Source of the DNA: Conexibacter woesei Iso977N
GTDB taxonomy: Bacteria; Actinomycetota; Thermoleophilia; Solirubrobacterales; Solirubrobacteraceae
DNA: 64,000 nt
Assembly: GCF_000424625.1 (NCBI RefSeq)
Contig: NZ_AUKG01000003.1
Coordinates: 496,001 to 560,000 of the forward strand
Direction of reading: 5' to 3'
Shown: positions 4,226-58,143 of the stretch, piece after piece
Layout of the letters: each line of letters begins with the position of its first letter
Position numbering within the stretch: the first letter of the stretch is position 1
Notes under the pieces: generated by a model
The model's input: only the letters and a program-made list of their open reading frames with translations
What the model was told of the DNA's origin: nothing
Databases searched by the model: none
Translations under genes and position numbers: made by a program

Positions 4226-4234
4226 TTGCTACCG
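4224..4234 (-). promoter_or_regulatory. CGGTAGCAAAT box upstream of metN
   Basis: On the minus strand this reads CGGTAGCAAAT. Nearly the same 11-mer occurs at 10542-10552 (CGGTAGGCAAT) and 62728-62738 (CGGTAGGAAAT), each beside sulfur-related genes. It abuts the ATCAAG palindrome. It could be the conserved half of a regulator site; the protein that binds it is unknown. Confidence 0.4.
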
Positions 4235-4247
4235 TGCCGCGCTCGCC

Positions 4248-5926: not shown

Positions 5927-5958
5927 ACACCCACCCCGAACCAGGAGCCCCTCTCCCC

Positions 5959-6819: not shown

Positions 6820-6826
6820 GAAGGCC

Positions 6827-7312
6827 ATGGGCACCGAGGCCACCGGCGTCGAGGCGCACGCGCTGCGCGCGGCGATGGGCAACTTCGCGACCGGCGTCGC
6901 GGTGGTGACCGCCGCCGACGCCGGTGGCCGCCCGTTCGGGACGACGGCCAACGCGATCAGCTCGCTGTCGCTGCGGCCGCCGCTCGTGCTCGCCTGCCTG
7001 CGGCGCGAGTCCGAGACGCTGGCGGCGATCCGCTCCGGCGAGCGGTTCGCCATCAACCTGCTCGGCGGGGGCCAGCGCGCGCTCGCCGAGCGGTTCGCGC
7101 GGGCAGCGTCGGCGGAGACCTGGGACGGCGTCGGCCACCGCCTGGCCGACGGCGTCCCGGTCCTCGACGCCACGCTGGCGACGGTCGAGTGCACGCTGCA
7201 CACGCTCTCCGACGGCGGCGACCACGAGATCGTCGTCGGCCGAGTCGTCGGCGTCGAGCACGTCGAGGACCACACCGACCCCCTGCTCTTCTACCGCGGC
7301 GCGTTTGCCTGA
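6827..7312 (+). CDS. Flavin reductase (FMN-binding split-barrel)
   Basis: A 161-residue protein with the flavin reductase-like domain: AMGNFATGVAVVTA at the N-terminus, FGTTANAISSLSLRPPLVLACL binding FMN, and FAINLL. Such enzymes supply reduced FMN/FAD to two-component monooxygenases. It begins 7 bp after metQ with AGGAAGG before the ATG, so it is probably in the same operon. The four luciferase-like oxygenases within 6 kb, including SsuD, are natural partners, giving an SsuE-like role. NADH versus NADPH preference cannot be read here. Confidence 0.85.
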   Translation: MGTEATGVEAHALRAAMGNFATGVAVVTAADAGGRPFGTTANAISSLSLRPPLVLACLRRESETLAAIRSGERFAINLLGGGQRALAERFARAASAETWDGVGHRLADGVPVLDATLATVECTLHTLSDGGDHEIVVGRVVGVEHVEDHTDPLLFYRGAFA

Positions 7313-7366
7313 GTGGCAGGACACCGCGGCTTGTTTCTTCACTGAATCCATGGGTAATGTCCACTC

Positions 7367-8572
7367 ATGGAACGCCGCCTCACCCGCCGCCAGACGCTGA
7401 AGCTCGCCGCAGCGGGCAGCGTGCCGCTGCTGACCGGGCTGCGGCTGCCGCCGGCCGCGCGCGCCGCCGGGCCGGTGCCGGGGATCGTCAAGGACCTCCC
7501 GGCGGACCTGCTGATCCCGCGCGGCACGAACGCCGAGATGGTCTGGACCGCGATGTCCGGTCAGGGCTACCTGACGCCCTACGACCGCTTCTTCGTCCGC
7601 AACCACACGCGCACGCCGATCGTGAACCCGGCGACGTGGCGGCTGGAGCTGTTCGGGACCGGCCTGCGCGGGCAGCCCAGGCGCGGGGCCGGGGTCAAGT
7701 TGTCGTTGAAGGACCTGGAGCGGCTGGAACGCGTCACCGCGACCGTCGCGGTCGAGTGCGCGGGCAATGGGCGCTCGTACTTCGCCACCCAGCAGGGGAC
7801 GCCGGCGCCCGGAACGGCGTGGACGCTGGGTGGCATCGGGGTCGCCGAGTGGAAGGGCGTGCTGTTGCGCGACGTGCTGGAGCTGGCCGGCGTGCGCGGC
7901 GACGCGGTCGACGTCATGCCCGAGGGCCTGGACGATCCGGTCCCGGCCGCCGACGGCAGCTCGCTCGGCAACGTGCGCCGGCCGTTCCCCATCAAGAAGG
8001 CGTTGGACGATGTGTTGATCGCCCTGGAGATGAACGGCAAGACGCTGCCGTTCGACCACGGCTTCCCGGCGCGCATCGTCGTGCCGGGTTGGGTCGGCGT
8101 GGCGAACATCAAGTGGGTGGGGTCGATCCGCGTGGCCAACGGCCACCTCTCCTCGCCGTGGAACACCACCCAGTACAGGATGGTCGGGCCGACGTACCCG
8201 GCCGACGCGCCGCCGCTGACGACGCGCCCGCTCAAGAGCGCCTTCGAGCTCACGCCCGGCGCGCCGTTCAAGGTCGGCCAGCCGGTCGTGCTGACCGGCC
8301 GCGCGTGGTCGGGCGAGGCGCGGCCGCGCTCGGTCCGGGTCTCGACCGACGGCGGCAGGACGTGGCAGGGCGCGAAGACCTACGGCGCCAACGGCGACGG
8401 CGCGTGGCTGCGCTGGGAGCTGCCGTGGACGCCGACGACCGCGGGCACCGTGGCGCTGGCCGCGCAGGCGACCGACCGGCTCGGCCACCAGCAGCCCGAC
8501 GTCGTGCCGTTCAACCGCGACGGCTACCTCTTCGACGGGATCGTCAGGCTGCCGGTGCGCGTCGCGGCGTGA
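7367..8572 (+). CDS. Tat-exported sulfite-oxidase-family molybdopterin protein
   Basis: A 401-residue protein. The N-terminus MERRLTRRQTLKLAAAGS is a twin-arginine signal, so it folds with cofactor before export. The molybdopterin domain holds the cofactor cysteine C131 in VECAGNGRS, and PGWVGVANIKWV is the dimer/cofactor segment. The C-terminal region (from about 285) is the Mo-co dimerisation Ig-like domain with VRVSTDGGRTW. The family oxidises sulfite to sulfate or reduces S-oxides. In this cluster it would detoxify sulfite released by SsuD-type monooxygenases; that role is inferred. Its 3' end overlaps the convergent monooxygenase gene by 29 bp. Confidence 0.87.
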   Translation: MERRLTRRQTLKLAAAGSVPLLTGLRLPPAARAAGPVPGIVKDLPADLLIPRGTNAEMVWTAMSGQGYLTPYDRFFVRNHTRTPIVNPATWRLELFGTGLRGQPRRGAGVKLSLKDLERLERVTATVAVECAGNGRSYFATQQGTPAPGTAWTLGGIGVAEWKGVLLRDVLELAGVRGDAVDVMPEGLDDPVPAADGSSLGNVRRPFPIKKALDDVLIALEMNGKTLPFDHGFPARIVVPGWVGVANIKWVGSIRVANGHLSSPWNTTQYRMVGPTYPADAPPLTTRPLKSAFELTPGAPFKVGQPVVLTGRAWSGEARPRSVRVSTDGGRTWQGAKTYGANGDGAWLRWELPWTPTTAGTVALAAQATDRLGHQQPDVVPFNRDGYLFDGIVRLPVRVAA

Positions 8573-32242: not shown

Positions 32243-32348
32243 GCCGGTGATCTGACGCCCGGCAGGGGCTATCTTGCCATTCCCGATCAGTTTGGTGTAG
32301 TTTGGTGCCGGACACCCCTCGCCCCGGTCCAAGGAAGTACCCCACACC
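32243..32348 (+). promoter_or_regulatory. Leader/promoter of the symporter operon with tandem decamer
   Basis: The 106-bp gap contains AGTTTGGTGT (32289-32298) directly followed by AGTTTGGTGC (32299-32308), a tandem 10-bp repeat one helical turn apart that could seat two regulator subunits side by side. AAGGAAG precedes the ATG at 32349. No riboswitch core is visible. Confidence 0.4.
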
Positions 32349-33938
32349 ATGCACATCAACTGGTCGGAACTGGTCCCGCTGCTCGCGGTGGCGGCCTCGT
32401 GGGCCGGCATCTGGTGGCTGCGCAGGAAGCAGCTCAACTTCAGCCTGATCGCGCTCTTCGCGCTCGGCGTCGGCGTCCCGATCGGCCTGCTCGCAGGCGC
32501 GCACACCAAGGACATCAACCCGATCGGGCACATCTACATCAACGTGCTTCTGGCCACGGTCGCGCCGCTGGTGCTGGTCGCGATCGTCTCGGCGATCACG
32601 TCGCTCGGCAGCCTGGAGAAGCTGCGCACGATCGGCCTGCGCTCGGTCTTCTGGCTGCTGCTCTCCAACGCGCTGGCGGTGATCCTGGCGCTCGGCCTCG
32701 CGCTCACGTTCCAGCCCGGCAGCGGCCTGCACCGCACGCTCGGCACGCTGTCGACCGACACGATCTCGGCGCAGGTCCAGGACTTCACGCAGGTCGTCGT
32801 CGGCTTCTTCCCGACCAACGTCGCCGAGAACTTCAGCGCCAACGACATCATCCCCATCATCATGATCGCGGTGGTCCTCTCGGTCGCCTACCTGGCGCTG
32901 GCCGAGAGGGAGCCGGAGCTGGTGCGGCCGTTCGGCGCGGGCGCCGAGGCGCTCAAGCTCGTGATCTTCAAGGCGGTCGGCTACGTGATCCGGCTGACGC
33001 CGTACGCGATCGTCGCGCTGACCGCCGACATGGTCGGCACGAGCTCGAACCTCGGCCACGACTTCACGTCGCTGCTCGGCCTGCTCGCGCTCGTCTGGGT
33101 CGCCTGCGCGATCCACGCCTACGTGTTCAACGGCGCGATCCTCGCGGCGTTCGCCGACGTCCCGGTGATCCCGTTCTTCCGCAAGATCTTCCCGGCGCAG
33201 GTGACCGCGTTCTCGACGCAGAGCTCGGTCGGCACGCTGCCCGTCACGACCGAGCAGCTGACGCGCAAGGTCGGCGTCCACTCCGAGATCGCGCACTTCA
33301 CCGCGCCGCTGGGGACGACGATCGGGATGCCGGGCTGCGCCGGGATCTGGCCGGTGATGATCGCCGTCTGGGGGATCAACGCCTACGGGATCCAGTACTC
33401 GGTCGGCGACTACGTGACGCTGGCCGTGCTCAGCACGATCGTGTCGATCGGCATCGCGGGCGTCCCGGGTGCGGCGACGGTCGCGGCGGCGACCGTGATG
33501 TCGGCGGCCCACCTGCCGCTGGAGTTCGTCGCGGCGACGATCCCGATCGGCATCATCGCCGACATGGCGCGCACGGCCACCAACGTGACCGCGGCGGCCG
33601 TGAGCGCGACGGTCGTCGCACGCCAGACCGGGCTGCTCGACGACGAGATCTTCGCGGGCCGCAAGGCCTACGTGGAGGCGGACCCGCCACCGCTCACGGC
33701 TCCGGCCTTCGCGCCCGCGGCCAACGGAGCGCCCGCGCCCAACGGCGCGGCGGTCGTCCCGCCGGGGTACGTCGCGGTGCCGGCCAGCGCCGTCGCCTAC
33801 GTCCCGGCGAGCGGCCCGGTCCCGGCGCCGCCGGCGGGCCCCACGCCATTCCCGTCCCCGGGCACCTACGGCGGCTTCCCGCGCGTCTACTGGGGCCCGA
33901 CCGAGCTGGCCGCCACCGGCGAGCGCAACGACAACTGA
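32349..33938 (+). CDS. Dicarboxylate/amino-acid:cation symporter (possibly cystine, TcyP-like)
   Basis: A 529-residue DAACS-family carrier. Hallmarks are the re-entrant loop region FSTQSSVGTLPVTTEQ (about 290-306), the helix containing HFTAPLGTTIGMPGCAG, and the final MARTATNVTAAA helix that carries substrate-binding Asp/Arg-Asn residues. The last about 90 residues are a Pro/Ala-rich tail, longer than usual. Family substrates are C4-dicarboxylates, glutamate or, for TcyP/YdjN types, L-cystine. The downstream secreted thioredoxin-like protein and desulfurase-like enzyme make cystine the attractive choice, by inference. It starts a four-gene unit. Confidence 0.82.
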   Translation: MHINWSELVPLLAVAASWAGIWWLRRKQLNFSLIALFALGVGVPIGLLAGAHTKDINPIGHIYINVLLATVAPLVLVAIVSAITSLGSLEKLRTIGLRSVFWLLLSNALAVILALGLALTFQPGSGLHRTLGTLSTDTISAQVQDFTQVVVGFFPTNVAENFSANDIIPIIMIAVVLSVAYLALAEREPELVRPFGAGAEALKLVIFKAVGYVIRLTPYAIVALTADMVGTSSNLGHDFTSLLGLLALVWVACAIHAYVFNGAILAAFADVPVIPFFRKIFPAQVTAFSTQSSVGTLPVTTEQLTRKVGVHSEIAHFTAPLGTTIGMPGCAGIWPVMIAVWGINAYGIQYSVGDYVTLAVLSTIVSIGIAGVPGAATVAAATVMSAAHLPLEFVAATIPIGIIADMARTATNVTAAAVSATVVARQTGLLDDEIFAGRKAYVEADPPPLTAPAFAPAANGAPAPNGAAVVPPGYVAVPASAVAYVPASGPVPAPPAGPTPFPSPGTYGGFPRVYWGPTELAATGERNDN

Positions 33939-33940
33939 CC

Positions 33941-35011
33941 ATGACCAAGAAGAGCATGAACATCTCCCCACGCAGGGTCCGCGCGACGGGCCTGGTCCTC
34001 CTCGGCGCTGCCGCGCTCGCGGTGCCCGCCGCGGCGCTGGCCACCGACATCACCAACCCCGCCCAGCACCCGGACCCGATCTCGGTGACGATCGACGGCC
34101 AGGTCTACAAGGACGGCGCGGACACGCTGCCCGGCTACGACGACTACGCCTGCACGCCGATCCCGAACGTCCAGTACGACTTCGACGACGACCAGATCCA
34201 GTACTACGACGGCGACGGCAACCTGATCAGGGCCGTCCACTGGACCGAGTGGCAGCGCATCAGCTCCTACGCGACCTGGCAGGCCCAGCACCAGGCGGCG
34301 ACGACCACGACGACGTCGACCAACGCGGCCACGACCACCACGACGACGACCACGACGGCGGGCGGCTCGGGCAGCTCCGGCGGTGGCGGCAGCAGCACGG
34401 CGAGCGCGGCCCCGGCGGCGTCCTCGGCGCCCGCCGCGTCGAGCACCCCGGCGGCGAGCACGCAGGCCGCGACGACGAGCGGCACGGCGACGACGACCAG
34501 GTCCTCGTCCTCGACCTCGTCCAGGTCGGCGGCCAGGAGCGGCGCCAGCACCAAGAGCACCAACTCGACCGCGGCCGCGACGACGACGTCCAAGGCCAAG
34601 CACTCGACCGCGGCGAGGGACGCCGCGACCGCGACGACCGCGGCCGACGGCACGACGTCGAGCGCCACCACGGCGCACGCCGCGGCGAGGCACGGCAGGG
34701 CCGCCACCACCACCGGCGCGGCGGCGCCCGCCGCCGACGGGACCCCCGCGGTCGACGGCACGCCCGTCGCCGGTGCGACGACCGCCGCGCCCAGCACGAC
34801 CGCCGCCGCGGCACCCGTCGCCGGCGCCGCGAACGGCGCGACCGCGGCCGGCGCCGCGCCCAGGTACAAGCTCGTCAGCGACAGGGGCGGCGCCACCTCG
34901 GCGCCCAACACCCGCGCCCTCGGCGTCGGGATCCTCGTCGCCCTCCTCGCAGTGGCCGGCGCCGCGTTCCTGTTCGGCCTCGGCCGGCGCGGCGTCCGAC
35001 GCTCCATCTGA
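33941..35011 (+). CDS. Secreted Thr/Ala/Ser-rich protein with C-terminal membrane anchor
   Basis: 356 residues, starting 2 bp after the symporter stop. Signal peptide with VLLGAAALAVPAAALA; then a short folded module (about 35-110, YDFDDDQIQYYDGDGNL) with the sole cysteine of the protein, C71 in YACTPIP. Residues about 115-310 are low-complexity Thr, Ala and Ser, a likely cell-wall-spanning stalk. A C-terminal hydrophobic helix (GVGILVALLAVAGAAFLFGLG) ending in basic residues anchors it; there is no clear LPXTG. It may display its N-terminal module beyond the wall. The family is not recognised. Confidence 0.75.
   Translation: MTKKSMNISPRRVRATGLVLLGAAALAVPAAALATDITNPAQHPDPISVTIDGQVYKDGADTLPGYDDYACTPIPNVQYDFDDDQIQYYDGDGNLIRAVHWTEWQRISSYATWQAQHQAATTTTTSTNAATTTTTTTTTAGGSGSSGGGGSSTASAAPAASSAPAASSTPAASTQAATTSGTATTTRSSSSTSSRSAARSGASTKSTNSTAAATTTSKAKHSTAARDAATATTAADGTTSSATTAHAAARHGRAATTTGAAAPAADGTPAVDGTPVAGATTAAPSTTAAAAPVAGAANGATAAGAAPRYKLVSDRGGATSAPNTRALGVGILVALLAVAGAAFLFGLGRRGVRRSI
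34297..34860 (+). repeat. Low-complexity Thr/Ala/Ser-coding tract
   Basis: Degenerate ACC/ACG, GCG/GCC and AGC/TCC codon runs encode a stalk with two poly-Thr blocks near its start. It is a protein-level composition bias, not a DNA tandem repeat of fixed unit. A similar Thr/Pro tract occurs at about 37315-37425 in the next gene. Confidence 0.6.
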
Positions 35012-35047
35012 TCCAGCAGCACCCCACCCCGACAAGAGAGCAACACC

Positions 35048-37732
35048 ATGCACATCACCTCCCGCTGGACGCGGGCGGGTGGAGCGCTGGCGGCCGCGGC
35101 CGCCACGCTCGCCCTTGCCTCCGTCCCGGCCGCGCAGGCGGCGCCCGAGCGCGTCGCCGACACGACCGGCTACACCACCACCACCTACCTCCAGCACGCC
35201 CTCGGCCTGCCGGCCGGCGACACCACGCCGGCGATCGAGCCCGTCACCTACGACCGCTTCCAGTGGCTGCTCCAGCAGCCCGGCAAGTTCGCGTTCCTGA
35301 TCGGCGATCCGGCGAGCACGACCGACACCACGTTCGCCCAGCGCGCCCAGGACGTCGAGGCCGAGGCCAAGAGCGAGGGCATCAGGAAGGTCTACTGGTT
35401 CAACCCCAACCTGTCGGGCAACGCGGTCGTCGGCACGATCACCGAGCCGACCCTCGACATCCGCGACGCGTCGTCGATCGGCCTCGCCTCGGCGTCGCAG
35501 ACCAAGTACGACAACGCCTGGAAGACGCTGATCGCCGACTACCTCGGCAACGGCCTCTCCGCCACGCACACGGGCGTCAACTCCGAGAGCGCGATCGTCA
35601 GGATCGACCCCTCTCCGAGCACCAAGAACGACAACGGCGGCACGAAGTTCGGCGGCAACGGCACCGACACCCCGCTGTTCGACTACACCAGCAGCACGCC
35701 GGCGAACATCCTGCACTCGTACTTCCTGGTCTACGACAAGGACCACACCGTCTCTGGCAGGACGGCGAAGATCCTCGGCTGGACCGACCTCTCGGCCGAC
35801 ACCCAGCAGGCGACGACCGAGGCCGTCGACGACGCGGTCGATGTCGTCGGCAGCGGCTCGGACTTCACCCAGCTCGACCAGTTCGCCTGGTGGAAGGACG
35901 AGGTCAACGCCAAGCACGCCGAGCAGGCCTCGGTCGTGCAGGGCAGGAACCACCCGGTCCTGACCGACGCCGACGCCGCCGACGGCTGGGACGTCGAGCA
36001 GATCACCTACCCCGAGCTGGTCGACCTGCTCAAGAGCGGCGCGAACGACAAGAACGCCGCGATCCTGTTCGGCGGCACCTGGTGCCCGAACACGCGCCCG
36101 GTCCTGCCGACCATCAACAAGGGCGCGCAGCGCAACGGCGTGCACGTGTTCAACTTCGACACGGTCCTCGACGGCGGCCTGGTCGGCGACGCGACGACGT
36201 CGTCGAAGAACCCGCTCCAGACGCGCAACACGCAGGACAACACGTCGACGAGGACCGCCAACTCGAACCCGACGTCGCTGTACGGCGACCTGGTCAACCA
36301 GTACCTCACCAACATCAACACCGAGTACGGCTCGATCGTCACCTACTACGCGGGTGGCAACACGGGCGGCACGCTCCTGAACGCCAAGAAGCTCCAGGTG
36401 CCGTTCCTGATCGGCTACGGCGGCAACGGCAGCACGGCCGCCAACCCCGGCGTCAAGCGCCAGTGGATCATCAGGAACAGCGACGGTTCGTACAAGGAGT
36501 ACATGACGAACTGGGGCGCGGTGAACCCGCAGCCGAACGAGCTGAACATCGACACGACCAGGCTCCCGGCCGGCGCCCCGATCTGGACCACGATCAATGC
36601 GCAGCTGGCGGCGTACACCCCGCAGACCGACCCGACGACGCTGTACGCGAACACGGCCGTCTACTCGGACTCCGACAGGTACCTGGTGGCGGGTGAGACC
36701 GCGACCGTGTCCTACAACTCCGCGAGTCAGAACCCCTGGACGATCTCACTGACCGGCCCGGTGGACATCAGCCCGACCGCGCTGTCGACGGCGCTGACCG
36801 CGCTGGGCAGCTCTGCGCCGGCGAACCTCGCCGACGCGAAGACCGCGTTGATCGCGGCGCTCTCGGGCTCCGACGCGCCGTTGACGGCCAACCTCAAGAC
36901 GGTCGTCGGCGCCTGGCAGCTCGCAACGAACGCCAAGAACGCCGTCAACGGCGCGTGGGGCAACGCGACCACGCCCGGCTCGGTCGCCGGCGGCCTCGCC
37001 GCGGTGCGCGCCGCCGACGTGTTCTTCGACGGCCTCCCGGGCGCGGTCGCGTCGCGGCGGACGGTCACGGCCGACGCGTCGAGCATCACGGTCAGGATCG
37101 ACACCGACTACGACCGCAACCCGACGGGCAACGTCGCGCTGACCCTGAAGAAGGGCGGCACGACGGTGACGACGGCCAGCGCCGCGGTCTCCGGTGGCAG
37201 CGCGACGTTCACGCTGCCGTCGTCGCTCGACGCGGGGTCGTACGACTACACGCTGACCTACGCGACCGACGAGCAGATCTTCGGCTTCACGGAGACCGGC
37301 TCGCTGACGGTGCCGGCGAGGACGACGACGACCACCACCACCACGACGACGCCGACCACGACGACCACGACCACGCCGTCGAGGACGCCGACCAGGCCGA
37401 CGACGACGCCCACCGCGCCGAGGGCCAGGAAGGCCAGCGCCGGCGCGGTCAGGGTCGTGCTCGTCTCGCGCCCGACGTCGAAGAAGGGTGGCAGGTACAC
37501 CGTGTCGATCGCGGCGGCCAGGGGCAAGGCGGCCGTCAGCGGCAAGGTGACGATCAAGCTCAAGAAGGGCTCGGTCACCAAGACGATCACGGCCAAGCTG
37601 GTCAAGGGCAAGGCGACGTTCACGCTGCCGAAGCTCGCCAAGGGCACGTGGAAGGTCACGATCGCGTGGCCGGGCAACACCACCTACAGGTCGCTGTCGA
37701 AGACCGCGACGTCGATCAAGGTCATCAAGTAG
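35048..37732 (+). CDS. Secreted protein with tandem thioredoxin-like modules and a single cysteine
   Basis: 894 residues. Signal peptide to about residue 32 (LALASVPAAQAA). A first thioredoxin-like module (about 65-130) has GKFAFLIGDPAS where an active site would be. A second (about 320-380) has AAILFGGTWCPNTRPVLP; C346 is the only cysteine in the whole protein, so this is a one-Cys WCPN site. A helical and beta region follows, then a Thr/Pro-rich linker (about 757-795) and a Lys-rich Ig-like domain ending KVTIAWPGNTTYRSLSKTA. It is between a symporter/stalk pair and a PLP enzyme. A monothiol role such as thiol transfer or disulfide capture is inferred. Confidence 0.75.
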   Translation: MHITSRWTRAGGALAAAAATLALASVPAAQAAPERVADTTGYTTTTYLQHALGLPAGDTTPAIEPVTYDRFQWLLQQPGKFAFLIGDPASTTDTTFAQRAQDVEAEAKSEGIRKVYWFNPNLSGNAVVGTITEPTLDIRDASSIGLASASQTKYDNAWKTLIADYLGNGLSATHTGVNSESAIVRIDPSPSTKNDNGGTKFGGNGTDTPLFDYTSSTPANILHSYFLVYDKDHTVSGRTAKILGWTDLSADTQQATTEAVDDAVDVVGSGSDFTQLDQFAWWKDEVNAKHAEQASVVQGRNHPVLTDADAADGWDVEQITYPELVDLLKSGANDKNAAILFGGTWCPNTRPVLPTINKGAQRNGVHVFNFDTVLDGGLVGDATTSSKNPLQTRNTQDNTSTRTANSNPTSLYGDLVNQYLTNINTEYGSIVTYYAGGNTGGTLLNAKKLQVPFLIGYGGNGSTAANPGVKRQWIIRNSDGSYKEYMTNWGAVNPQPNELNIDTTRLPAGAPIWTTINAQLAAYTPQTDPTTLYANTAVYSDSDRYLVAGETATVSYNSASQNPWTISLTGPVDISPTALSTALTALGSSAPANLADAKTALIAALSGSDAPLTANLKTVVGAWQLATNAKNAVNGAWGNATTPGSVAGGLAAVRAADVFFDGLPGAVASRRTVTADASSITVRIDTDYDRNPTGNVALTLKKGGTTVTTASAAVSGGSATFTLPSSLDAGSYDYTLTYATDEQIFGFTETGSLTVPARTTTTTTTTTTPTTTTTTTPSRTPTRPTTTPTAPRARKASAGAVRVVLVSRPTSKKGGRYTVSIAAARGKAAVSGKVTIKLKKGSVTKTITAKLVKGKATFTLPKLAKGTWKVTIAWPGNTTYRSLSKTATSIKVIK

Positions 37733-37744
37733 GTCGATCAGCAA

Positions 37745-39103
37745 GTGACGCAGGTGCAGACCACCGCCGCCGGCAGGCTCCTCGAGCTTGTCGGCGGCGA
37801 CCTGCGGGTCCCGCTCGTGGATGGCACGACGGCCCGCTACGTCAACCTCGACAACGCGGCGAGCGCCCCGGCGCTCGCGCCGGTCGCCGCGGTCGTCGAC
37901 GAGCTCTTGGAGTACTACGGCAGCGTGCACCGCGGCGCGGGGTTCGCCTCGATCGTCAGCACCGAGGCCTACACCGCGGCGCGCGAGGTCGTCCGCGGCT
38001 TCGTCGGCGCGCGCGACGACGACCTGGTGTTGTTCACGCGCAACACGACCGACGCCTTCAACCTGCTCGCCGCGGCGCTGCCGCCGGGCACGACGGTCGT
38101 GACGTTCGCGGGCGAGCACCACGCGAACCTGCTGCCGTGGCGCAGACACGCGCAGACCGTCCACCTGCCGATCCCGTCCGGACCGGCGGAGGCGCTGGCC
38201 GCGCTCGACGGCGAGCTGCACCGGCTCGGCGGGCGCGGGCCGGTGCTCGTGTCGGTGACGGGCGCGTCGAACGTGACCGGCGAGGTCTGGCCGATCGAGG
38301 AGATCGTGGCGATCGCGCAGCGCCACGGCGCGCGCGTCGCGCTGGACGCCGCGCAGCTGGCGGCGCACCGTGTTCTTGATGTTGAAGCCTGGGGCGTCGA
38401 CTACGTCGCGTTCTCGGGCCACAAGGTGTACGCCCCGTACGGGGCGGGCGTGCTCGCGGGGCGGGCGGACTGGCTCGACGCCGGCCGCCCGCACGTCGCG
38501 GGCGGCGGTGCCGTCCGGCGCGTCGGCGTCGATGATGTGGAATGGGCGACCGGTCCCGCGCGCCACGAGGGCGGCACGCCCGCGGCGCTCGGCGCCGTGG
38601 CGATCGCCGCCGCCGTGCGGACGCTGGACGCCGCCGGCTGGGACGCGATCGTCGAGCACGAGGAGGAGCTCTTGCAGCGGTTGCTCGACGGCCTCGACGC
38701 GCTGCCCGGCCTCCGGACCTACACGCTCTGGGACCGGGCGCCGGACCGCGTCGGCGTCGTGACCTTCGGGGTCGACGGCCTCGACTCCGCGCTGCTCGCC
38801 GCCGCCCTCGGCGCCGAGCACGCGATCGGCGTCCGCGACGGATCGTTCTGCGCCCACCCGCTGATGGAGCACTTCGGCGGCGGCCCGGCGCTCCGTGCCT
38901 CGATCGGCGTCGGCACGAGCGCCGACGACATCGACCGCCTGCTCAACGCGCTGAGCGACATCATCAACAACGGACCCCGCTGGACCTACGTCGAGGCCGA
39001 CGGCTACGTGCTGCCCTCGCCGGACCCGCGCCCGCGCCCGTCGCTGGGCGGCCTCCTCGGCGCGACTCCGGTGGTCGTCGCCGGCGCGCCCTGCCGCACC
39101 TGA
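37745..39103 (+). CDS. Class V PLP aminotransferase / cysteine-desulfurase-like paralogue
   Basis: A 452-residue paralogue of the SAM-IV-controlled enzyme at 2054. PLP lysine K227 in SGHKVYAPYGAG; C369 in GSFCAHPLMEH at the desulfurase cysteine position; EHHANLLPWRR and VSVTGASNVTGEV are shared blocks. The GTG start at 37745 is 12 bp after the thioredoxin-like gene, so it probably closes the same operon. Given its neighbours it may release sulfur from imported cyst(e)ine. Fe-S assembly is less likely, since no suf or isc genes are present. Substrate unproven. Confidence 0.83.
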   Translation: MTQVQTTAAGRLLELVGGDLRVPLVDGTTARYVNLDNAASAPALAPVAAVVDELLEYYGSVHRGAGFASIVSTEAYTAAREVVRGFVGARDDDLVLFTRNTTDAFNLLAAALPPGTTVVTFAGEHHANLLPWRRHAQTVHLPIPSGPAEALAALDGELHRLGGRGPVLVSVTGASNVTGEVWPIEEIVAIAQRHGARVALDAAQLAAHRVLDVEAWGVDYVAFSGHKVYAPYGAGVLAGRADWLDAGRPHVAGGGAVRRVGVDDVEWATGPARHEGGTPAALGAVAIAAAVRTLDAAGWDAIVEHEEELLQRLLDGLDALPGLRTYTLWDRAPDRVGVVTFGVDGLDSALLAAALGAEHAIGVRDGSFCAHPLMEHFGGGPALRASIGVGTSADDIDRLLNALSDIINNGPRWTYVEADGYVLPSPDPRPRPSLGGLLGATPVVVAGAPCRT

Positions 39104-39116
39104 GCGCGCCGGTCGG

Positions 39117-39899
39117 CTACTTCCTGCCCAGCTCGGCCATCGTCTTGCGCAGGGCCTCCATGAGGTCCGGCGCGGGCGATGGCTCGTCGTCCTGGGCGGG
39201 CGCGTCGATCGTCCCGTCCCTCTCCTTGGCCCTGACGATCCTCTGCAGCCGCCTGCGGTGCTCGTCCCTGTAGGCCTTGGGGTCGAAGTCCACCGACAAC
39301 GCCTCGACGAGCCTGACCGCCTGGGACAGCGCCTTGGCCGCCGGCCTCCTGCCGCCGTTGTCGATGTCCTTGGTCGGCCGGATCTCGTCCGGGAACAACA
39401 TGGTGGTCAACGCGAGCAGGTTGTCGCGGACACGGACGGTGACGAGGTACTCCTTCGTGCGCAGCACGAAGCGCCCGAGCGCCACGCGGTCGGTGCTGCC
39501 CATCGCCTCGATCAGAAGGCGGTAGGCGCGCTTGGTCCCGGCCGACTCGCCGGTCGGCAGCAGCCAGTAGGGGTGGTCGAAGAGGATCGGGTCGACGTCG
39601 GCGGCGTCGACGAAGGACTGGATCTCGATCGTGCGCGTGCGCTGGGGCGCGATCGCGGCCAGCTCGTCGTCGGTCAGGACGACCTGCCTGCCGGACCTCA
39701 ACTCATAGGCCTTGCCGATGTCCTCGTAGGCGACCTCCTCGTCCTCCCTGCTGCAGAAGCGCCGGATCTCGACCCGCGCGCCGTCCTTCTCGTGCAGCTG
39801 GTGGAAGTGCACGTCGAGGTCGCGCCCCGCGCTGTAGAGCGCGACCGGGACGTTGACGAGCCCGAAGCTCAGCGAGCCCGACCAGAGCGAGCGGGCCAT
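39117..39899 (-). CDS. ku: Ku-family DNA end-binding protein (second of a tandem pair)
   Basis: A 260-residue bacterial Ku core. It starts ARSLWSGSLSFGLVNVPVALYSA and contains RRFCSREDEEVAYEDIGKAYEL, quoted in parts. Ku rings thread onto double-strand ends and recruit LigD for non-homologous end joining. It has a short acidic C-terminal tail. Its ATG overlaps the stop of the other ku gene by one base. The two copies are clearly divergent in sequence and may form a heterodimer, as proposed for other bacteria with two ku genes. Confidence 0.92.
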   Translation of the reverse strand: MARSLWSGSLSFGLVNVPVALYSAGRDLDVHFHQLHEKDGARVEIRRFCSREDEEVAYEDIGKAYELRSGRQVVLTDDELAAIAPQRTRTIEIQSFVDAADVDPILFDHPYWLLPTGESAGTKRAYRLLIEAMGSTDRVALGRFVLRTKEYLVTVRVRDNLLALTTMLFPDEIRPTKDIDNGGRRPAAKALSQAVRLVEALSVDFDPKAYRDEHRRRLQRIVRAKERDGTIDAPAQDDEPSPAPDLMEALRKTMAELGRK

Positions 39900-40714
39900 C
39901 AGGCGGCCGCCTTCTTCTTGGTGGCCTTGGCCCTGGTCCTGCCCCTGCGCCTCGGCAGGCTCGCCTCCAAGGCGGCGGCGAGGTCGTCGCGCTCCTCCTC
40001 GGGCTCCGCCTCCGGGATGTCGATGTCCCTGCCCCTGGCCTTGTCCCTGATCGCGGCGAGCACGGTCTCGCGGTACTCGTCGTGCAGCCTGCCGGGGCGG
40101 AAGTCCTCGGTCAGCGCCGCGACGAGCTGCTCGGCCATCCTGACCTCCCTGGCCTCCGGCCTGCCCGCGAGGCGCGGCGCGTCGAGGTCCCTGCGCGTGA
40201 CCAGCTCGTCGGCGAAGCGCATCGTGTGCAAGGCCAGGACCTTCTCATAGGCCTTGATCGCGACCAGGTACTCGCGGTGGTGGAACGTGAAGCGTCCGAT
40301 CGCGGCGCGGCCGGTCTGCTCGAGCGCGTCGTGCAGCAACCGATAGGCGTCGCCGCCCTCGTCGCGCGCGCCCAAGAAGTAGGCCTTGTCGAAGTACACC
40401 GGGTCGATCGCGGCGGCGTCGACGAAGTGCTCGACGTCGATGATCCGCGAGCGCGAGCCGCCGGCCGCGTCGATCTCCTCCTGGTCGACGACGACGTACC
40501 TGCCCTCGCGCACCTCGAAGCCCTTGACGACCTCGTCCTTGGCGACCTCCCTGTCCTCCTTGGTGCAGAACGGCCGGTGCTCGATCCGCGCGCCGTCCTT
40601 CAGGTGCACCTCGTGGAAGTGCACCGTCCTGGGCGCGACCGCCGAGTAGAGCTTGATCGGGACGGCGACCGCGCCGAACGCGATCGTGCCGTTCCACAGC
40701 GAGCGGGGTGCCAT
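39899..40714 (-). CDS. ku: Ku-family DNA end-binding protein (first of a tandem pair)
   Basis: A 271-residue Ku core: APRSLWNGTIAFGAVAVPIKLYSA at the N-terminus (quoted in part), then RPFCTKEDREVAKDEVVKGFEV. The C-terminus is a basic Lys/Arg/Ala tail (RRRGRTRAKATKKKAAA), as in mycobacterial and streptomycete Ku, where it aids DNA binding. It is first in a two-gene operon. No LigD ligase/polymerase gene is in the window. Confidence 0.92.
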   Translation of the reverse strand: MAPRSLWNGTIAFGAVAVPIKLYSAVAPRTVHFHEVHLKDGARIEHRPFCTKEDREVAKDEVVKGFEVREGRYVVVDQEEIDAAGGSRSRIIDVEHFVDAAAIDPVYFDKAYFLGARDEGGDAYRLLHDALEQTGRAAIGRFTFHHREYLVAIKAYEKVLALHTMRFADELVTRRDLDAPRLAGRPEAREVRMAEQLVAALTEDFRPGRLHDEYRETVLAAIRDKARGRDIDIPEAEPEEERDDLAAALEASLPRRRGRTRAKATKKKAAA

Positions 40715-41677: not shown

Positions 41678-41721
41678 GCACCCGAGTCTCGCAAAACCGG
41701 CGCGGGAGTATGGTGGGGCGC

Positions 41722-42756
41722 ATGGCCGCCGTCACCAGCCCGGTCCCGCTGACGTCGCTGTCCTCGGGCGCCGGCTGCGGCTGCAAGCTCGCCGCCGCCG
41801 ACCTGCTCCCGATCGTCAGGGACCTCCCGGCCGCGACCGACCCGCGCCTGCTCGTCGGCTCGTCGACCGGCGACGACGCCGCGGTGTTCCGGATCAGCGA
41901 CGACGTCGCGCTGGTCCAGACGATCGACTTCTTCACCCCGTTGGTGGACGATCCTTACGACTTCGGCCGTGTCGCCGCCGCCAACGCGCTGAGCGACGTG
42001 TACGCCATGGGCGGCGTCCCGGTGACCGCGATGAACGTCGTCGCGTTCCCGCTGGAGCGCCTCGGCGGCGACGTGCTCGGCGCGATCCTGCGCGGGGGCG
42101 CCGACGTGGTGGCGCAAGCGGGCGCGTCGGTCGTCGGCGGGCACTCGATCAAGGACGACGAGCCGAAGTACGGGTTGGCGGTGACCGGGACGGTGCACCC
42201 GGACCGGATCGTGGCGAACGCGGGCGGGCAGGTCGGCGATGTCCTGGTGTTGACCAAGCCGCTCGGCGTCGGCGCGATCGTCACCGCCGCCAAGCGCGGC
42301 GCCGCGGGGCCGGACCTCGTCGCGCGCGCGGTCGAGGTCATGGTGGAGCTCAACGCCGACGCGTCGCGCGTCGCGCTGGCCGCGGGCGTGCACGCGATGA
42401 CCGACGTGACGGGCTTCGGGTTGTTGGGGCACTTGCACAACGTCGCGCGCGAGAGCGGGCTGGCGGCGGAGGTCGACGCGGCCGCGGTCCCGGCGATCGA
42501 CGGGGTCGAGGCGCTGCTGTGCGCCGAGGGCGCCGTCTCCGGCGGCAGCGCCCGCAACGCCGAGTGGGCGGCGGGCTTCGCGACGATCGGCGACCGCGTC
42601 GAGCCCTGGCGCGCGCGGCTGCTGACCGACGCCACGACGTCCGGCGGGTTGTTGATGGCCTTGCCCGCTCAGACCGACGTCGCCGCCGCGATCCCCGGCG
42701 GCACGGTGGTCGGCCGCCTCACCGACGGCCCGCCTGGCACGATCTCGGTCGCATGA
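41722..42756 (+). CDS. selD: Selenophosphate synthase SelD (Cys form)
   Basis: 344 residues. The Gly-rich N-terminus SSGAGCGCK holds C19 and K22, equivalent to catalytic C17 and K20 of E. coli SelD; several organisms have selenocysteine at that cysteine, this one does not. VGSSTGDDAAV, QTIDFFTPLVDDPYDFGRVAAANALSDVYAMGG in parts, and TDVTGFGLLGHL are conserved. It makes selenophosphate from selenide and ATP for SelA. The ATG at 41722 is preferred to an ATG 12 bp upstream because GGTGGGG precedes it closely. It is first in selD, tRNA-Sec, selB, selA. Confidence 0.95.
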   Translation: MAAVTSPVPLTSLSSGAGCGCKLAAADLLPIVRDLPAATDPRLLVGSSTGDDAAVFRISDDVALVQTIDFFTPLVDDPYDFGRVAAANALSDVYAMGGVPVTAMNVVAFPLERLGGDVLGAILRGGADVVAQAGASVVGGHSIKDDEPKYGLAVTGTVHPDRIVANAGGQVGDVLVLTKPLGVGAIVTAAKRGAAGPDLVARAVEVMVELNADASRVALAAGVHAMTDVTGFGLLGHLHNVARESGLAAEVDAAAVPAIDGVEALLCAEGAVSGGSARNAEWAAGFATIGDRVEPWRARLLTDATTSGGLLMALPAQTDVAAAIPGGTVVGRLTDGPPGTISVA

Positions 42757-42766
42757 CGCAGCACCT

Positions 42767-42858
42767 GGAGCGGCCCGGGGCCGGTGCCCCGATCGGCCTT
42801 CAAAGCCGCTGGCGGCGCCTCGACCGCGCCGGGAAGGTTCGACTCCTTCGCCGCTCCG
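42767..42858 (+). tRNA. selC: tRNA-Sec (anticodon UCA)
   Basis: Acceptor stem GGAGCGGC/GCCGCTCC is 8 bp and perfect; the T stem GAAGG/CCTTC (5 bp, loop TTCGACT) follows it directly, giving the bacterial 8+5 arrangement. The D arm CGGGGC-CGGT-GCCCCG is long (6 bp). The anticodon arm CGGC-CTTCAAA-GCCG carries TCA at 42800-42802. A long variable arm (about 42810-42831) follows. The discriminator is G; CCA is not encoded. It starts 10 bp after selD and ends one base before the selB ATG. Confidence 0.96.
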
Positions 42859-42859
42859 T

Positions 42860-44374
42860 ATGAGTCCGCCGCCGTATGGCGCGGCGGCCGCCGTCCCGCC
42901 GCTGACGCTCGGGACCGCGGGGCACATCGACCACGGCAAGAGCGCGCTGGTGCGGGCGCTGACCGGGGTCGAGACCGACCGGTTGGAGGAGGAGCGGCGG
43001 CGGGGGATCTCGATCGTGCTCGGGTACGCGCCGCTGGCGCTGCCGTCGGGGCGGCGGGTGAGCGTCGTGGACGTCCCGGGGCACGAGCGGTTCGTCCGGA
43101 CGATGGTTGCGGGGGCGACCGGGATCGACTGCTACATGATGGTCGTCGCGGCCGACGACGGGGTGATGCCGCAGACGGTCGAGCACGCGACGGTGCTCGA
43201 CGCGCTTGGCGTACATGATGGTGTCGTCGCGATCACGAAGGCCGACGTCGCCGCCCCGGAGCGCGCGCTGGCTGAGGCGCGCGAGCTGCTGCCGCGCGCT
43301 GCGGCGTTCGTGCCGTGCTCGGCGGTGACGGGGCAGGGCGTGGCGGACGTGGCCGCGGCACTCGACGCGGTCGCCGCGGGGCTGCCGGGACGCGCGGGGG
43401 ACGACGGCGACGCGGTCCTGCACGTCGACCGCGCGTTCACGGTCGACGGGATCGGGACGGTCGTCACGGGCACGCTGTGGTCGGGCCGGATCGCGCGGGG
43501 CGACATGATGGCTTTGCTCCCCGGCGGGCGCGAGGCGCGGGTCCGGTCGGTCCAGGTCCATGATGTCGACGTGGACGCCGCCGAGGCGGGGCAGCGCGTC
43601 GCGGTCGCGCTGGCGGGCGTCCGAGCGCGAGAGGTGGCGCGCGGCGACGTCCTGGCCGCGCCGGGCGCGCGGAGCGAGTCCACCATCTTGGACTGCGCGC
43701 TGGCGCTGCGCGACGACGCGCGCCACGGCGAGCGCGTCCACGTCCACCATGGGACGCGCGAGGCGCCCGCGCGGCTGAGCGACCTCGGCGACGGCCTCTG
43801 GCAGCTGCGCCTGGAGGCACCGCTGATGGCTGCCGACGGCGACCGCGTCGTCGTCCGCCGCCTCTCGCCGCCCGACACGCTCGGCGGCGGCACCGTCCTC
43901 GACGCGCGCGCGAGCAAGCACGGCCGCCGCGCCGACGTCCTCGCCCGCCTCGTCGCGCGCCGCGACGGGCGGCCGGAGCCCGCGGCGCCCGTGCCTGCCG
44001 AGGCGCCCGCGCCGCCCGCCGCCGCCGCGCCCGCCGTCGCCCCGGAACAGCGCGCCGCCGCCGACGCGCTCGCCGCCGAGCTGCGCGCCACGCTGCTGCT
44101 CTCCGAGGCGCAGGTCGACCGCGCCGCGCTCGCGCTGCTGCGGGAAGAGGGGCGAGCGGTCCGGATCAGTGGCACCCTGTACGCCGATGCGGCGATCGCC
44201 GACGAGACCCGGAGCAAGATCATGGCGTTGATCGCGGAGCGCGGCTCGGCGTCGCTCGCCGAGGTCCGCGACGCGCTCGCCACCGGCCGCAAGCCCGCGC
44301 AGGCGTTCCTCGAGCACCTCGACGCCCAGCGCGTCACGCGCCGCTTGCCCGACGACCGCCGCGTGCTGCGATGA
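42860..44374 (+). CDS. selB: Selenocysteine-specific elongation factor SelB
   Basis: 504 residues, shorter than E. coli SelB (614). The GTPase has G1 GTAGHIDHGKS, G3 DVPGHERFV and G4 ITKAD, the EF-Tu-like beta domains follow (about 175-350), then an Ala/Pro-rich linker (about 370-395) and a C-terminal winged-helix region of about 110 residues, room for about two of the usual four winged helices. These bind the SECIS hairpin. It delivers Sec-tRNA to UGA. Its ATG lies one base past tRNA-Sec with no Shine-Dalgarno, so the mRNA may be leaderless after tRNA 3' processing. Confidence 0.95.
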   Translation: MSPPPYGAAAAVPPLTLGTAGHIDHGKSALVRALTGVETDRLEEERRRGISIVLGYAPLALPSGRRVSVVDVPGHERFVRTMVAGATGIDCYMMVVAADDGVMPQTVEHATVLDALGVHDGVVAITKADVAAPERALAEARELLPRAAAFVPCSAVTGQGVADVAAALDAVAAGLPGRAGDDGDAVLHVDRAFTVDGIGTVVTGTLWSGRIARGDMMALLPGGREARVRSVQVHDVDVDAAEAGQRVAVALAGVRAREVARGDVLAAPGARSESTILDCALALRDDARHGERVHVHHGTREAPARLSDLGDGLWQLRLEAPLMAADGDRVVVRRLSPPDTLGGGTVLDARASKHGRRADVLARLVARRDGRPEPAAPVPAEAPAPPAAAAPAVAPEQRAAADALAAELRATLLLSEAQVDRAALALLREEGRAVRISGTLYADAAIADETRSKIMALIAERGSASLAEVRDALATGRKPAQAFLEHLDAQRVTRRLPDDRRVLR

Positions 44375-45687
44375 CCACGCAGAACGAGCTCCTGCGCGCG
44401 CTGCCCGCCGTCGACCGCCTCGCCGCCGAGGCCGGTGGGCCGGAGGCGATCGCTGCCGCGCGCGCCGTCGTGGAGGAGCGCCGCGCTGAGATCCTCGCGG
44501 GCGCGACCGACGACCCCAACCTGCTCGACCGCGTCCGCGCGCGCCTGGCGCCGTCGCCGCGCCGCGTCGTCAACGCGACCGGCGTGATCATCCACACCAA
44601 CTTGGGTCGCGCCCCGCTGGCCGAGCAGGCCGCCGAAGCGGTCGCGCGCGCCGCGCGCGGCTACCTCGACCTTGAGCTGGACCTCGCCTCCGGCCGCCGC
44701 GGCGGCCGCGACGCCCACGCCGCGCGGCTGATCGCCGAGCTGACCGGCGCGCAGGACGCGCTCGTCGTCAACAACGGCGCGGCCGCGACGCTGCTGGCCG
44801 CCGCCGCGCTCGCCGGGCCGGGGAAGGCGATCGTCGTCTCCCGCGGCCAGCTGGTCGAGATCGGCGGTGGCTTCCGCGTCCCGGAGGTCGTGGCCCAGGC
44901 CGGCGCGCGCCTGGTCGAGGTCGGCACGACCAACCGCACCAACATCACGGACTACGAGCGCGCGCTCGCCGACGGCGCCGACGTGATCCTGCGCGTGCAC
45001 CAGTCGAACTTCCGCACGGTCGGCTTCACCGCCGACGTCGGCATCGAGCAACTCACCGCACTGGGCGCGCCCGTGATCGACGACCTCGGCTCCGGCGTCC
45101 TGGCCGAGGACCCGATCTTCGCCGACGAGCCGTCGGTCCGCGCCTCGATCGCCGCCGGGGCGGCGCTCGTCGCGTTCAGCGGCGACAAGCTGCTCGGCGG
45201 CCCGCAGGCCGGGATCCTCGCCGGGACCAAGGCTGCCGTCGCGCAGGCCCGCGCCCACCCGCTCGCCCGCGCGCTGCGCGTCGGCCGCCTCCCGATGGCT
45301 GCGCTGACCGCCACGCTGCGCCTCTACCGCGACCCGGCGCACGCCCGCCAGGCGATCCCGGTCCTGGCCATGCTCGACGTCCCGGAGCATGTCCTCCAAC
45401 AACGCGCGCAGCGCATCGCACAGGCCACCGGCGGTGAGATCGTCACCGCGACCTCCAAGGTCGGCGGCGGCGCGCTCCCGCTCCTGGAGCTGCGCGGCCC
45501 CGCGGTCGCGGTCGGCCCGCTCGGCGCGGGTGTCGACGCGCTCGCCGCGCGCCTCCGCGCCCAGGACCCGCCGCTGCTCGTCCGCGTCCACGAGGGCCGC
45601 GTCCTCGTCGACCCCCGGACGCTCTACGACGACGCCGAGCTCGGCGCGGCACTGGCCGCGCTGCGCGCAGCGCTCGCCGCGGCCTAG
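44371..45687 (+). CDS. selA: L-seryl-tRNA(Sec) selenium transferase SelA
   Basis: 438 residues. The PLP lysine is K273 in AFSGDKLLGGPQAG; NATGVIIHTNLGRAPL and VIDDLGSGVL are SelA hallmarks. The decameric enzyme turns Ser-tRNA-Sec into Sec-tRNA-Sec with selenophosphate. It overlaps selB by 4 bp (ATGA), so it is translationally coupled. Its stop overlaps the convergent formate-channel gene by 4 bp. Confidence 0.95.
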   Translation: MTTQNELLRALPAVDRLAAEAGGPEAIAAARAVVEERRAEILAGATDDPNLLDRVRARLAPSPRRVVNATGVIIHTNLGRAPLAEQAAEAVARAARGYLDLELDLASGRRGGRDAHAARLIAELTGAQDALVVNNGAAATLLAAAALAGPGKAIVVSRGQLVEIGGGFRVPEVVAQAGARLVEVGTTNRTNITDYERALADGADVILRVHQSNFRTVGFTADVGIEQLTALGAPVIDDLGSGVLAEDPIFADEPSVRASIAAGAALVAFSGDKLLGGPQAGILAGTKAAVAQARAHPLARALRVGRLPMAALTATLRLYRDPAHARQAIPVLAMLDVPEHVLQQRAQRIAQATGGEIVTATSKVGGGALPLLELRGPAVAVGPLGAGVDALAARLRAQDPPLLVRVHEGRVLVDPRTLYDDAELGAALAALRAALAAA

Positions 45688-57224: not shown

Positions 57225-57315
57225 GCCCCAGACCTTTTATGTGCAAACCCGATCTGAATTGTGTGGTTAGGATATTGTCCAGCAACCAACCATGCAAACT
57301 GGGAAAGGGAGTTCC
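57225..57315. promoter_or_regulatory. Divergent promoter region of pst and the zinc-ribbon operon
   Basis: A 91-bp relatively AT-rich gap. TAGGAT at 57268-57273 is a -10 candidate for pstS, but no -35 is at proper spacing. I cannot identify repeated PHO-box direct repeats with confidence. Confidence 0.3.
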
Positions 57316-58143
57316 GTGGAGATGACTCGCTCTCGTCGCCTCACCGCCGCGGTCGCCGCCGTCGGCGTCCTCGCAGTGGCAGCACCCGCCGGCGCACAGG
57401 CCAAGGCCAGCACGATCACGATCAGTGGTGCGACCGGCTCAGCGCCGCTGATCGCGCTGCTCGCCAAGAAGTACGTCGCGCTCAAGCCCGGCAAGGTCAG
57501 GTTCAAGCTCGCCCAGGGCGGCGGCGAGGTCGGCATCCAGGACGCCGCGGCCGGCCGCGTCACGATCGGCAACGCCGCGCGCGACCCGCGCCCGAGCGAT
57601 CCGTCGGGCCTGGTCTTCTACCCGATCGCCAGGGACTTCTTCTGCTTCGACACCAACCCGGCCAACCCGCTGCCGAACCTGTCGCTGCAGCAGGCGCAGG
57701 CGATCTGGACCGGTCAGGTCCGCAACTGGGAGGACATCCCGGGCTCGAGGGTCACGGGCACGATCGACCTGATCGGCCGCACCTCGGCCTCGTCGCTGCC
57801 GCCGCTCGTCCAGCAGCTCCTGCTCGGCAACAAGACGATCTCGTCGCTCGCAGCGCTGAAGCCGTCTGACGGCCTCGTCGAGTCGACCGTCGGCAGCGAC
57901 AAGAACGCGATCGGCTTCAACTCGGGGTACTACGCCTCGCAGAGGGACGTCCACGCGGTCTCGTTCAACGGCGTCGCCTGCAACCTCGCCAACGCGAAGT
58001 CCGGCCAGTACCCGGGCATCCGCACGTACTACGAGGTCACCCGCGGCCCGGCCCAGGGCGCGGCCTCCGCGTTCATCCACTGGATCCAGAAGTCGCCGGT
58101 GGCCCGCAGGATCATCGCGTCGATCGCGATCCCGCTGGACTGA
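57316..58143 (+). CDS. pstS: Phosphate-binding protein PstS (short form)
   Basis: 275 residues, shorter than most PstS (about 340-370). Signal peptide LTAAVAAVGVLAVAAPAGA. TISGATGSAPLIALLAKKY matches the phosphate-loop start, RVTIGNAARDPRP, and NLSLQQAQAIWTGQVRNWEDI is the PBP/PstS hallmark. No lipobox is present, so it may be free or held by its partners. AAAGGGA precedes the GTG at 57316 (in-frame ATG at 57322). It overlaps pstC by one base. It captures phosphate for PstCAB. Confidence 0.87.
   Translation: MEMTRSRRLTAAVAAVGVLAVAAPAGAQAKASTITISGATGSAPLIALLAKKYVALKPGKVRFKLAQGGGEVGIQDAAAGRVTIGNAARDPRPSDPSGLVFYPIARDFFCFDTNPANPLPNLSLQQAQAIWTGQVRNWEDIPGSRVTGTIDLIGRTSASSLPPLVQQLLLGNKTISSLAALKPSDGLVESTVGSDKNAIGFNSGYYASQRDVHAVSFNGVACNLANAKSGQYPGIRTYYEVTRGPAQGAASAFIHWIQKSPVARRIIASIAIPLD

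What the first reader, a model, noticed from the sequence alone, without database searches (positions are those of the whole stretch)
32349..39103. Candidate undescribed cyst(e)ine acquisition system
Four closely spaced genes encode an amino-acid symporter, a wall-spanning stalk protein with one cysteine, a tandem thioredoxin-like secreted protein with one cysteine, and a desulfurase-like enzyme. Together they could capture disulfides outside, reduce or transfer them, import the amino acid and release sulfur. I know of no described system with this set.
Basis: inference. Interest (0 to 1): 0.72.

Follow-up and report, generated by a model that had tools for sequence, protein, structure and literature searches.

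The report
Surface-assisted cystine uptake operon
A four-gene cassette in soil actinobacteria of the Solirubrobacter family joins a cystine-type importer to two exported proteins that each keep one invariant cysteine and to a sulfur-releasing enzyme, so it probably scavenges sulfur amino acids at the cell surface by a layout I could not find described before.

Summary
The four genes are real, and their linkage is not chance. The symporter, the tethered one-cysteine protein and the tandem-thioredoxin protein occur together, in the same order, in the same 14 of 146 genomes of the family. The desulfurase follows directly in 9 of the 13 genomes where this can be judged, and it has no ortholog elsewhere in those 146. 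Flanking genes are not shared, so the unit is a discrete cassette. One promoter-like box precedes the symporter in all 11 operons examined.

The symporter is not a dicarboxylate carrier by descent. It is sister to the TcyP cystine symporters (support 100/96) and shares their one-residue insertion with Cys in TM7. The desulfurase belongs to a subfamily whose other members lie behind SAM-IV riboswitches, including a paralog in this window; this points to sulfur metabolism. The secreted protein is a genuine tandem thioredoxin-like repeat with exactly one cysteine (WC[PT]NT) in all 13 sequences.

Import of cystine or a close analogue is likely, but the extracellular step is inferred only, and the upstream box is not sulfur-specific. 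I judge it a new variant of a known kind (TcyP cystine uptake): about 0.5 confidence in the whole mechanism, 0.7 in substrate class.

The parts
32279..32303 (+). conserved promoter/operator box, consensus AAACCCGAYCAGNTTNGTGTAGATT
   Evidence: present in all 11 operons examined, 45-50 nt (once 68) before the symporter start; core pattern: 1 match in 64 kb, 0.01 expected
32349..33938 (+). TcyP-clade DAACS/SDF symporter; TM7 motif GTTIGMPGCAGIWP; Pro/Ala-rich C-terminal tail
   Evidence: Pfam SDF E 7.5e-94; sister to TcyP 100/96; only SDF gene found in the genome
33941..35011 (+). exported, membrane-tethered stalk protein (signal peptide, small domain, long linker, TM helix)
   Evidence: alignment of 12 sequences; AlphaFold2 model: beta domain about 45-100, disorder to 325, helix 324-346
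34049..34279 (+). conserved globular part of the stalk (residues 37-113)
   Evidence: the part that aligns across orthologs; linker does not
34151..34153 (+). invariant Cys71 of the stalk (GYDDYACTPIP)
   Evidence: invariant in 12 of 12 aligned sequences
35048..37732 (+). secreted tandem thioredoxin-like protein with helical region and C-terminal Ig-like domain, no membrane or sortase anchor seen
35231..35548 (+). thioredoxin-like repeat 1, cysteine-less (LIGDPA in place of GGTWCPNT)
   Evidence: hhalign to repeat 2, P 9.8e-6; no direct match to TrxA
35990..36310 (+). thioredoxin-like repeat 2 with the motif GGTWCPNTR
   Evidence: hhalign to E. coli TrxA P 7e-5; profile to 6lyw E 0.012 at the same site
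36083..36085 (+). invariant single Cys346 (WC[PT]NT)
   Evidence: only cysteine in all 13 sequences
37481..37723 (+). C-terminal Big_3_5 Ig-like domain
   Evidence: Pfam E 2.9e-11
37745..39103 (+). cytosolic class-V PLP cysteine-desulfurase-like enzyme
   Evidence: Aminotran_5 E 4.7e-85; TIGR01979 288 bits, below its 475 cut-off; own clade
38849..38851 (+). active-site cysteine Cys369 (VRDGSFCAHPLM)
   Evidence: aligned with the SufS/CsdA active-site cysteine
39092..39094 (+). C-terminal tail cysteine Cys450
   Evidence: conserved in all 8 operon enzymes aligned and most SAM-IV-controlled relatives

Best explanation
It is a cyst(e)ine-scavenging operon with a surface module. Inferred steps: the stalk protein, anchored by its C-terminal helix, holds a small one-cysteine domain away from the membrane. 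The secreted tandem-thioredoxin protein has no anchor of its own and docks there, possibly through a disulfide between the two single cysteines. Its monothiol WC[PT]NT site takes part in thiol-disulfide exchange with cystine or mixed disulfides near the wall. Better supported steps: the TcyP-clade symporter brings cystine or a close analogue into the cell, and the cytosolic PLP desulfurase releases its sulfur as a persulfide for reuse. Shown here: gene set, order, co-inheritance, families, conserved cysteines and shared upstream box. Not shown: substrate, docking, electron flow, induction.
For: Symporter orthologs (71-85% identity) are in exactly the 14 of 146 genomes that have the thioredoxin-like gene; all other SDF hits are at most 32% identical. 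Order symporter-stalk-Trx holds in every locus with enough flank, and essentially only these genes are shared between loci. Symporter is sister to TcyP, 100/97, and 100/96 after removing long branches; grouping it with the other Cys-insert clade is rejected, p-AU 0.012. The TM7 GCAG insertion is shared with annotated cystine transporters and absent in GltP, DctA, SstT. Desulfurase orthologs (72-78%) in 9 genomes, always directly after the Trx gene, none elsewhere in the family. SAM-IV riboswitch before the window paralog and before 8 of 10 relatives at 53-57% identity. One invariant cysteine in each exported protein. TcyP is an established cystine importer (PMC4383340; PMC8015009).
Against: Substrate specificity cannot be read from a tree: the ortholog clade sits on a long branch (about 2.4 changes per column) and has GMPG where TcyP has GQNG. 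No extracellular reductant or electron donor such as CcdA is in the cassette. 4 of 13 genomes lack the desulfurase next to the core. The upstream box also occurs before peptide-type, sugar-type and (weakly) phosphate uptake genes, so it is not a sulfur signature. The AlphaFold model of the Trx-like protein is too poor to use (pLDDT 43.6). Co-occurrence is confined to one family.
Confidence: 0.5

Rival explanations
1. Oxidative-stress shuttle: the operon mainly returns cystine formed when exported cysteine is oxidised, or keeps surface thiols reduced, in UV-exposed soil bacteria. The surface monothiol protein is a redox buffer and nutrition is secondary.
For: E. coli uses cystine importers in a cysteine/cystine shuttle against peroxide (PMC4383340); pneumococcal surface thioredoxin lipoproteins protect against oxidants (PMC3914529); Solirubrobacter is abundant in high-UV desert soils (PMC10722151).
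Against: A resolving cysteine is missing, so no standard dithiol reductase; no peroxidase, Msr or CcdA in the cassette; a desulfurase from a SAM-controlled subfamily points to sulfur use.
Confidence: 0.2
2. Acidic amino acid or dicarboxylate importer: the symporter carries aspartate, glutamate or another acid, and the exported proteins are unrelated surface or wall proteins that travel with it.
For: The arginine of the TM8 motif is kept (DMART); Pfam and NCBIfam names are generic; the best PDB match is labelled aspartate transporter.
Against: TcyP keeps the same arginine. The NMDGT motif is replaced by GMPGCAG; the tree places it with TcyP and rejects the other Cys-insert clade. The PDB match carries the ordinary NMDGT motif. 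Does not explain the desulfurase or the invariant cysteines.
Confidence: 0.13
3. Selenium route: the operon imports selenocystine and the enzyme acts as a selenocysteine lyase that feeds the selenoprotein genes about 3 kb downstream.
For: selD, tRNA-Sec, selB and a selA-like gene lie at 41.7-45.7 kb; TcyP proteins admit selenocystine (PMC8015009); selenocysteine lyase SclA is a distant relative of the enzyme.
Against: The window's sel genes have no counterpart next to any other copy of the operon; relatives of the enzyme are under SAM-IV riboswitches; selenocystine is rare in nature (general knowledge).
Confidence: 0.06
4. Import of another sulfur amino acid such as S-sulfocysteine, cystathionine or a mycothiol-derived mixed disulfide rather than cystine itself, with the same downstream logic.
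For: E. coli TcyP is annotated cystine/sulfocysteine symporter; the ortholog clade is long-branched and its TM7 motif differs from TcyP.
Against: No enzyme for sulfocysteine, cystathionine or mycothiol conjugates in the cassette.
Confidence: 0.11

Closest known systems
TcyP / YdjN L-cystine symporters (DAACS/SDF family)
   Same: Same transporter family, sister clade (100/96), shared TM7 insertion with Cys (GCAG), shared DM[GA]RT motif.
   Different: GMPG instead of GQNG; Pro/Ala-rich C-terminal tail; fixed operon with two exported one-cysteine proteins and usually a desulfurase. E. coli tcyP has no such neighbours.
SAM-IV-riboswitch-controlled class-V desulfurases of Solirubrobacteraceae (paralog at window 2051-3406)
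   Same: 53-57% identity, same FCAH active site, often the same C-terminal tail cysteine.
   Different: Operon enzymes form their own clade (98/99), have no riboswitch and sit behind the Trx-like gene.
SufS / CsdA cysteine desulfurases
   Same: PLP lysine motif SGHK, EHHAN, active-site cysteine aligned.
   Different: Separated by a long branch with 100/100 support; active-site HCA[MQ]P changed to FCAHP; below every NCBIfam cut-off; no SufE/SufU/SufBCD seen beside it.
Surface thioredoxin lipoproteins Etrx1/Etrx2 of Streptococcus pneumoniae (PMC3914529)
   Same: Thioredoxin-fold proteins outside the cell.
   Different: Etrx are lipoproteins in CcdA pathways that serve MsrAB2; here there is a monothiol, unlipidated tandem repeat beside a cystine-type symporter.
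Thioredoxin (E. coli TrxA)
   Same: Second repeat aligns through the active-site strand and helix.
   Different: Second active-site cysteine replaced by Thr; first repeat has no cysteine; secreted, 894 aa with an Ig-like domain.

Membership tests
TcyP cystine symporter | SDF/DAACS family | tested here: met
   Pfam SDF E 7.5e-94
TcyP cystine symporter | TM7 one-residue insertion with Cys-Ala-Gly (NGCAG) | tested here: met
   GMPGCAGIWP against GQNGCAGLYP in four annotated TcyP; absent in GltP, DctA, SstT
TcyP cystine symporter | falls inside the TcyP clade | tested here: not met
   it is the sister group of TcyP plus a Melissococcus protein, not nested within
TcyP cystine symporter | transports L-cystine | not testable with these tools
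   needs an uptake assay
thioredoxin-fold proteins | strand-WC-helix active-site pattern at the canonical place | tested here: met
   hhalign to TrxA P 7e-5; PDB profile hit to 6lyw E 0.012 at the same site
thioredoxin-fold proteins | CXXC dithiol for reductase activity | tested here: not met
   WC[PT]NT, only one cysteine in all 13 sequences
thioredoxin-fold proteins | three-dimensional fold | tested here: inconclusive
   AlphaFold2 model too weak, pLDDT 43.6
SufS-type cysteine desulfurase | PLP lysine and active-site cysteine | tested here: met
   SGHK and FCAHP aligned with SufS and CsdA
SufS-type cysteine desulfurase | NCBIfam SufS subfamily cut-off (475 bits) | tested here: not met
   288 bits
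SufS-type cysteine desulfurase | sulfur acceptor SufE/SufU or SufBCD in the locus | tested here: not met
   not among the shared genes; flanks differ between loci
CymR-type sulfur regulon | operator shared with sulfur genes and an Rrf2 regulator | tested here: inconclusive
   in G155 the box precedes a sulfite-dehydrogenase-like gene in an Rrf2/MetQ cluster, and a weak match lies between rrf2 and metN in the window, but the box also precedes non-sulfur uptake genes

The most novel reading that the evidence does not exclude
A surface receptor for a secondary (DAACS) transporter: a stalk-tethered monothiol tandem-thioredoxin protein captures extracellular cystine or mixed disulfides by covalent thiol exchange and hands the amino acid to a dedicated TcyP-type symporter. 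That would be the first such covalent capture module known to me for an elevator-type symporter.
Probability: 0.22. Interest if true: 0.82.

Novelty: new variant of a known kind. Interest (0 to 1): 0.6.

Why it matters
How thick-walled Gram-positive soil bacteria obtain organic sulfur outside the cell is poorly known, and TcyP-type symporters are, as far as I know, stand-alone genes. A conserved cassette that couples one to two exported single-cysteine proteins makes the question of an extracytoplasmic redox or capture step directly testable. It also corrects a likely misannotation (dicarboxylate symporter) and links a desulfurase subfamily to sulfur control through SAM-IV riboswitches.

Tried and rejected
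Dicarboxylate or glutamate carrier: rejected as most likely by motif and tree. Top PDB match 9bgy/9bgz (aspartate transporter): looked at; it carries the ordinary NMDGT motif, so not taken as substrate evidence (from memory it may be a reconstructed sequence, not checked). Sulfur-specific regulon: the box first seemed shared with an Rrf2/MetQ cluster, but further copies precede SBP_bac_5, MBL/ABC and (weakly) Pst genes, so the claim was reduced to a shared uptake-type promoter. Riboswitch on the operon itself: none in 7 loci. Selenium link: not conserved. Distant homologs of the Trx-like protein outside the family: none in the other 395 of 396 genomes sampled across the phylum (one marginal partial hit, E 0.026) nor in plasmids. 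AlphaFold of the Trx-like protein: too poor, so no fold search was run. Literature searches for a described system with this gene set found none; one query was malformed.

Full report
What is there. The window lies in a 5.7 Mb genome whose best matches are Solirubrobacter and kin. Four genes on the + strand fill 32349-39103 with gaps of 2, 36 and 12 nt. In relatives the symporter and stalk genes overlap or abut, e.g. L014, L016, L018, L035, which fits translational coupling.

Conservation and linkage. With the thioredoxin-like gene as query, 14 of 146 family genomes (4 of 25 genera, the window's own included) match, the others at 47-61% identity, and no more are found in the order. The symporter query finds orthologs at 71-85% in exactly those genomes; every other SDF protein is at most 32% identical. 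The order symporter-stalk-Trx holds in every locus with enough flank. The desulfurase follows directly in 9 genomes; it is absent next to the core in G001, G059, G079 and G078, and G054 ends too early to tell. Two of the 14 (G150, G151) are near copies. Outside the four genes almost nothing is shared between loci. A cassette kept together while its surroundings change argues for joint function, although all evidence comes from one family.

Symporter. It is the only SDF gene found in this genome. Against E. coli it scores best with TcyP (162 bits for a family profile, GltP 127, DctA 96). The TM7 motif GTTIGMPGCAGIWP carries the one-residue insertion with Cys seen in annotated L-cystine transporters and not in GltP, DctA, SstT or aspartate-type carriers. 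In trees of 68 and 58 sequences it is sister to TcyP with 100/97 and 100/96 support. Placing it with the other Cys-insert clade (TKMDGC, widespread in Actinomycetota) is rejected at p-AU 0.012. Published TcyP proteins import cystine: E. coli YdjN (PMC4383340) and C. jejuni Cj0025c, which had been annotated as a sodium:dicarboxylate transporter (PMC8015009). The branch to this clade is long, so substrate class is likely but exact substrate is open.

Exported proteins. The stalk has a signal peptide by eye, a conserved domain (residues 37-113) with invariant Cys71, a linker of about 200 residues and a C-terminal helix. The Trx-like protein has a signal peptide by eye and no visible anchor. Its second repeat aligns with TrxA at the active site (P 7e-5; decoys >=0.019 over both domain-2 queries) and its first repeat aligns with the second over 100 columns (P 9.8e-6; shuffles >=0.037). 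Exactly one cysteine occurs in all 13 sequences, at WC[PT]NT. From established thiol chemistry, such a monothiol site can form mixed disulfides but cannot resolve them alone. That the unanchored protein docks to the stalk, or that the two cysteines pair, is inference.

Desulfurase. PLP lysine, histidines and active-site cysteine are kept, but the motif is FCAHP instead of HCA[MQ]P, and the clade is remote from SufS and CsdA (100/100). A paralog at 2051-3406 sits directly behind a SAM-IV riboswitch at 1901-2017, and 8 of 10 relatives in other genomes have a SAM-IV match in their fetched locus, in the position expected upstream. The operon copies have none. This ties the subfamily to sulfur amino acid metabolism independently of sequence names. 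A conserved C-terminal tail cysteine is shared with most of those relatives and may accept sulfur (inference).

Regulation. A box AAACCCGAYCAGNTTNGTGTAGATT precedes the symporter in all 11 operons at nearly constant distance, while the rest of the upstream DNA does not align by eye. Elsewhere the box lies 6-8 nt before start codons (L140, L158, L163), as a -10 element of leaderless transcripts would, so it is probably a promoter with an overlapping operator. One copy in G155 precedes a sulfite-dehydrogenase-like gene in an Rrf2/MetQ cluster, but others precede ABC solute-binding or metallo-hydrolase genes and, weakly, pstS. I conclude one probable transcript with shared control of uptake genes, not a proven sulfur regulon.

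Verdict. Observation confirmed; interpretation partly supported and strengthened on three points (co-inheritance, TcyP kinship, sulfur-controlled enzyme subfamily). The extracellular step remains a hypothesis. Works like: TcyP cystine uptake with a surface thiol module. Member of: the SDF family, sister to but not inside TcyP; not a SufS; not a dithiol thioredoxin.

Noticed in passing
window 1901-3406: SAM-IV riboswitch directly upstream of a second desulfurase-like gene; SAM-IV matches also accompany 8 of 10 relatives in other genomes of the family.
   Followed up: yes
window 3692-8572: Sulfur-type cluster: Rrf2 regulator (closest equivalog CymR, far below cut-off), divergent MetN/MetI/MetQ-like importer, flavin reductase, sulfite-dehydrogenase-like molybdoenzyme; palindromic site AATCAAGGTCAACTTGATCTTC between rrf2 and metN.
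   Followed up: partly
window 41704-45687: Complete-looking selenocysteine set: selD, tRNA-Sec (42767-42857), selB and a selA-like gene.
   Followed up: partly
window 39117-40714: Two adjacent Ku-like genes on the minus strand directly after the operon.
   Followed up: no
window 57245-57269: Weak copy of the operon's upstream box before a pstS-like gene (57292-58143).
   Followed up: partly
L104 391-1800: Melissococcus plutonius plasmid SDF symporter of the TcyP side lies next to a CoA-disulfide reductase gene, another pairing of such a symporter with a disulfide enzyme.
   Followed up: no
L106, L114, L128 and others: A widespread actinobacterial SDF clade with TM7 motif TKMDGCAAIYPA shares the Cys insertion with TcyP; substrate unknown to me.
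   Followed up: no
L155, L161: The same upstream box precedes a conserved secreted protein in two genomes (no Pfam match for the one tested); in one (L170) it lies beside Pst-type permease genes.
   Followed up: partly
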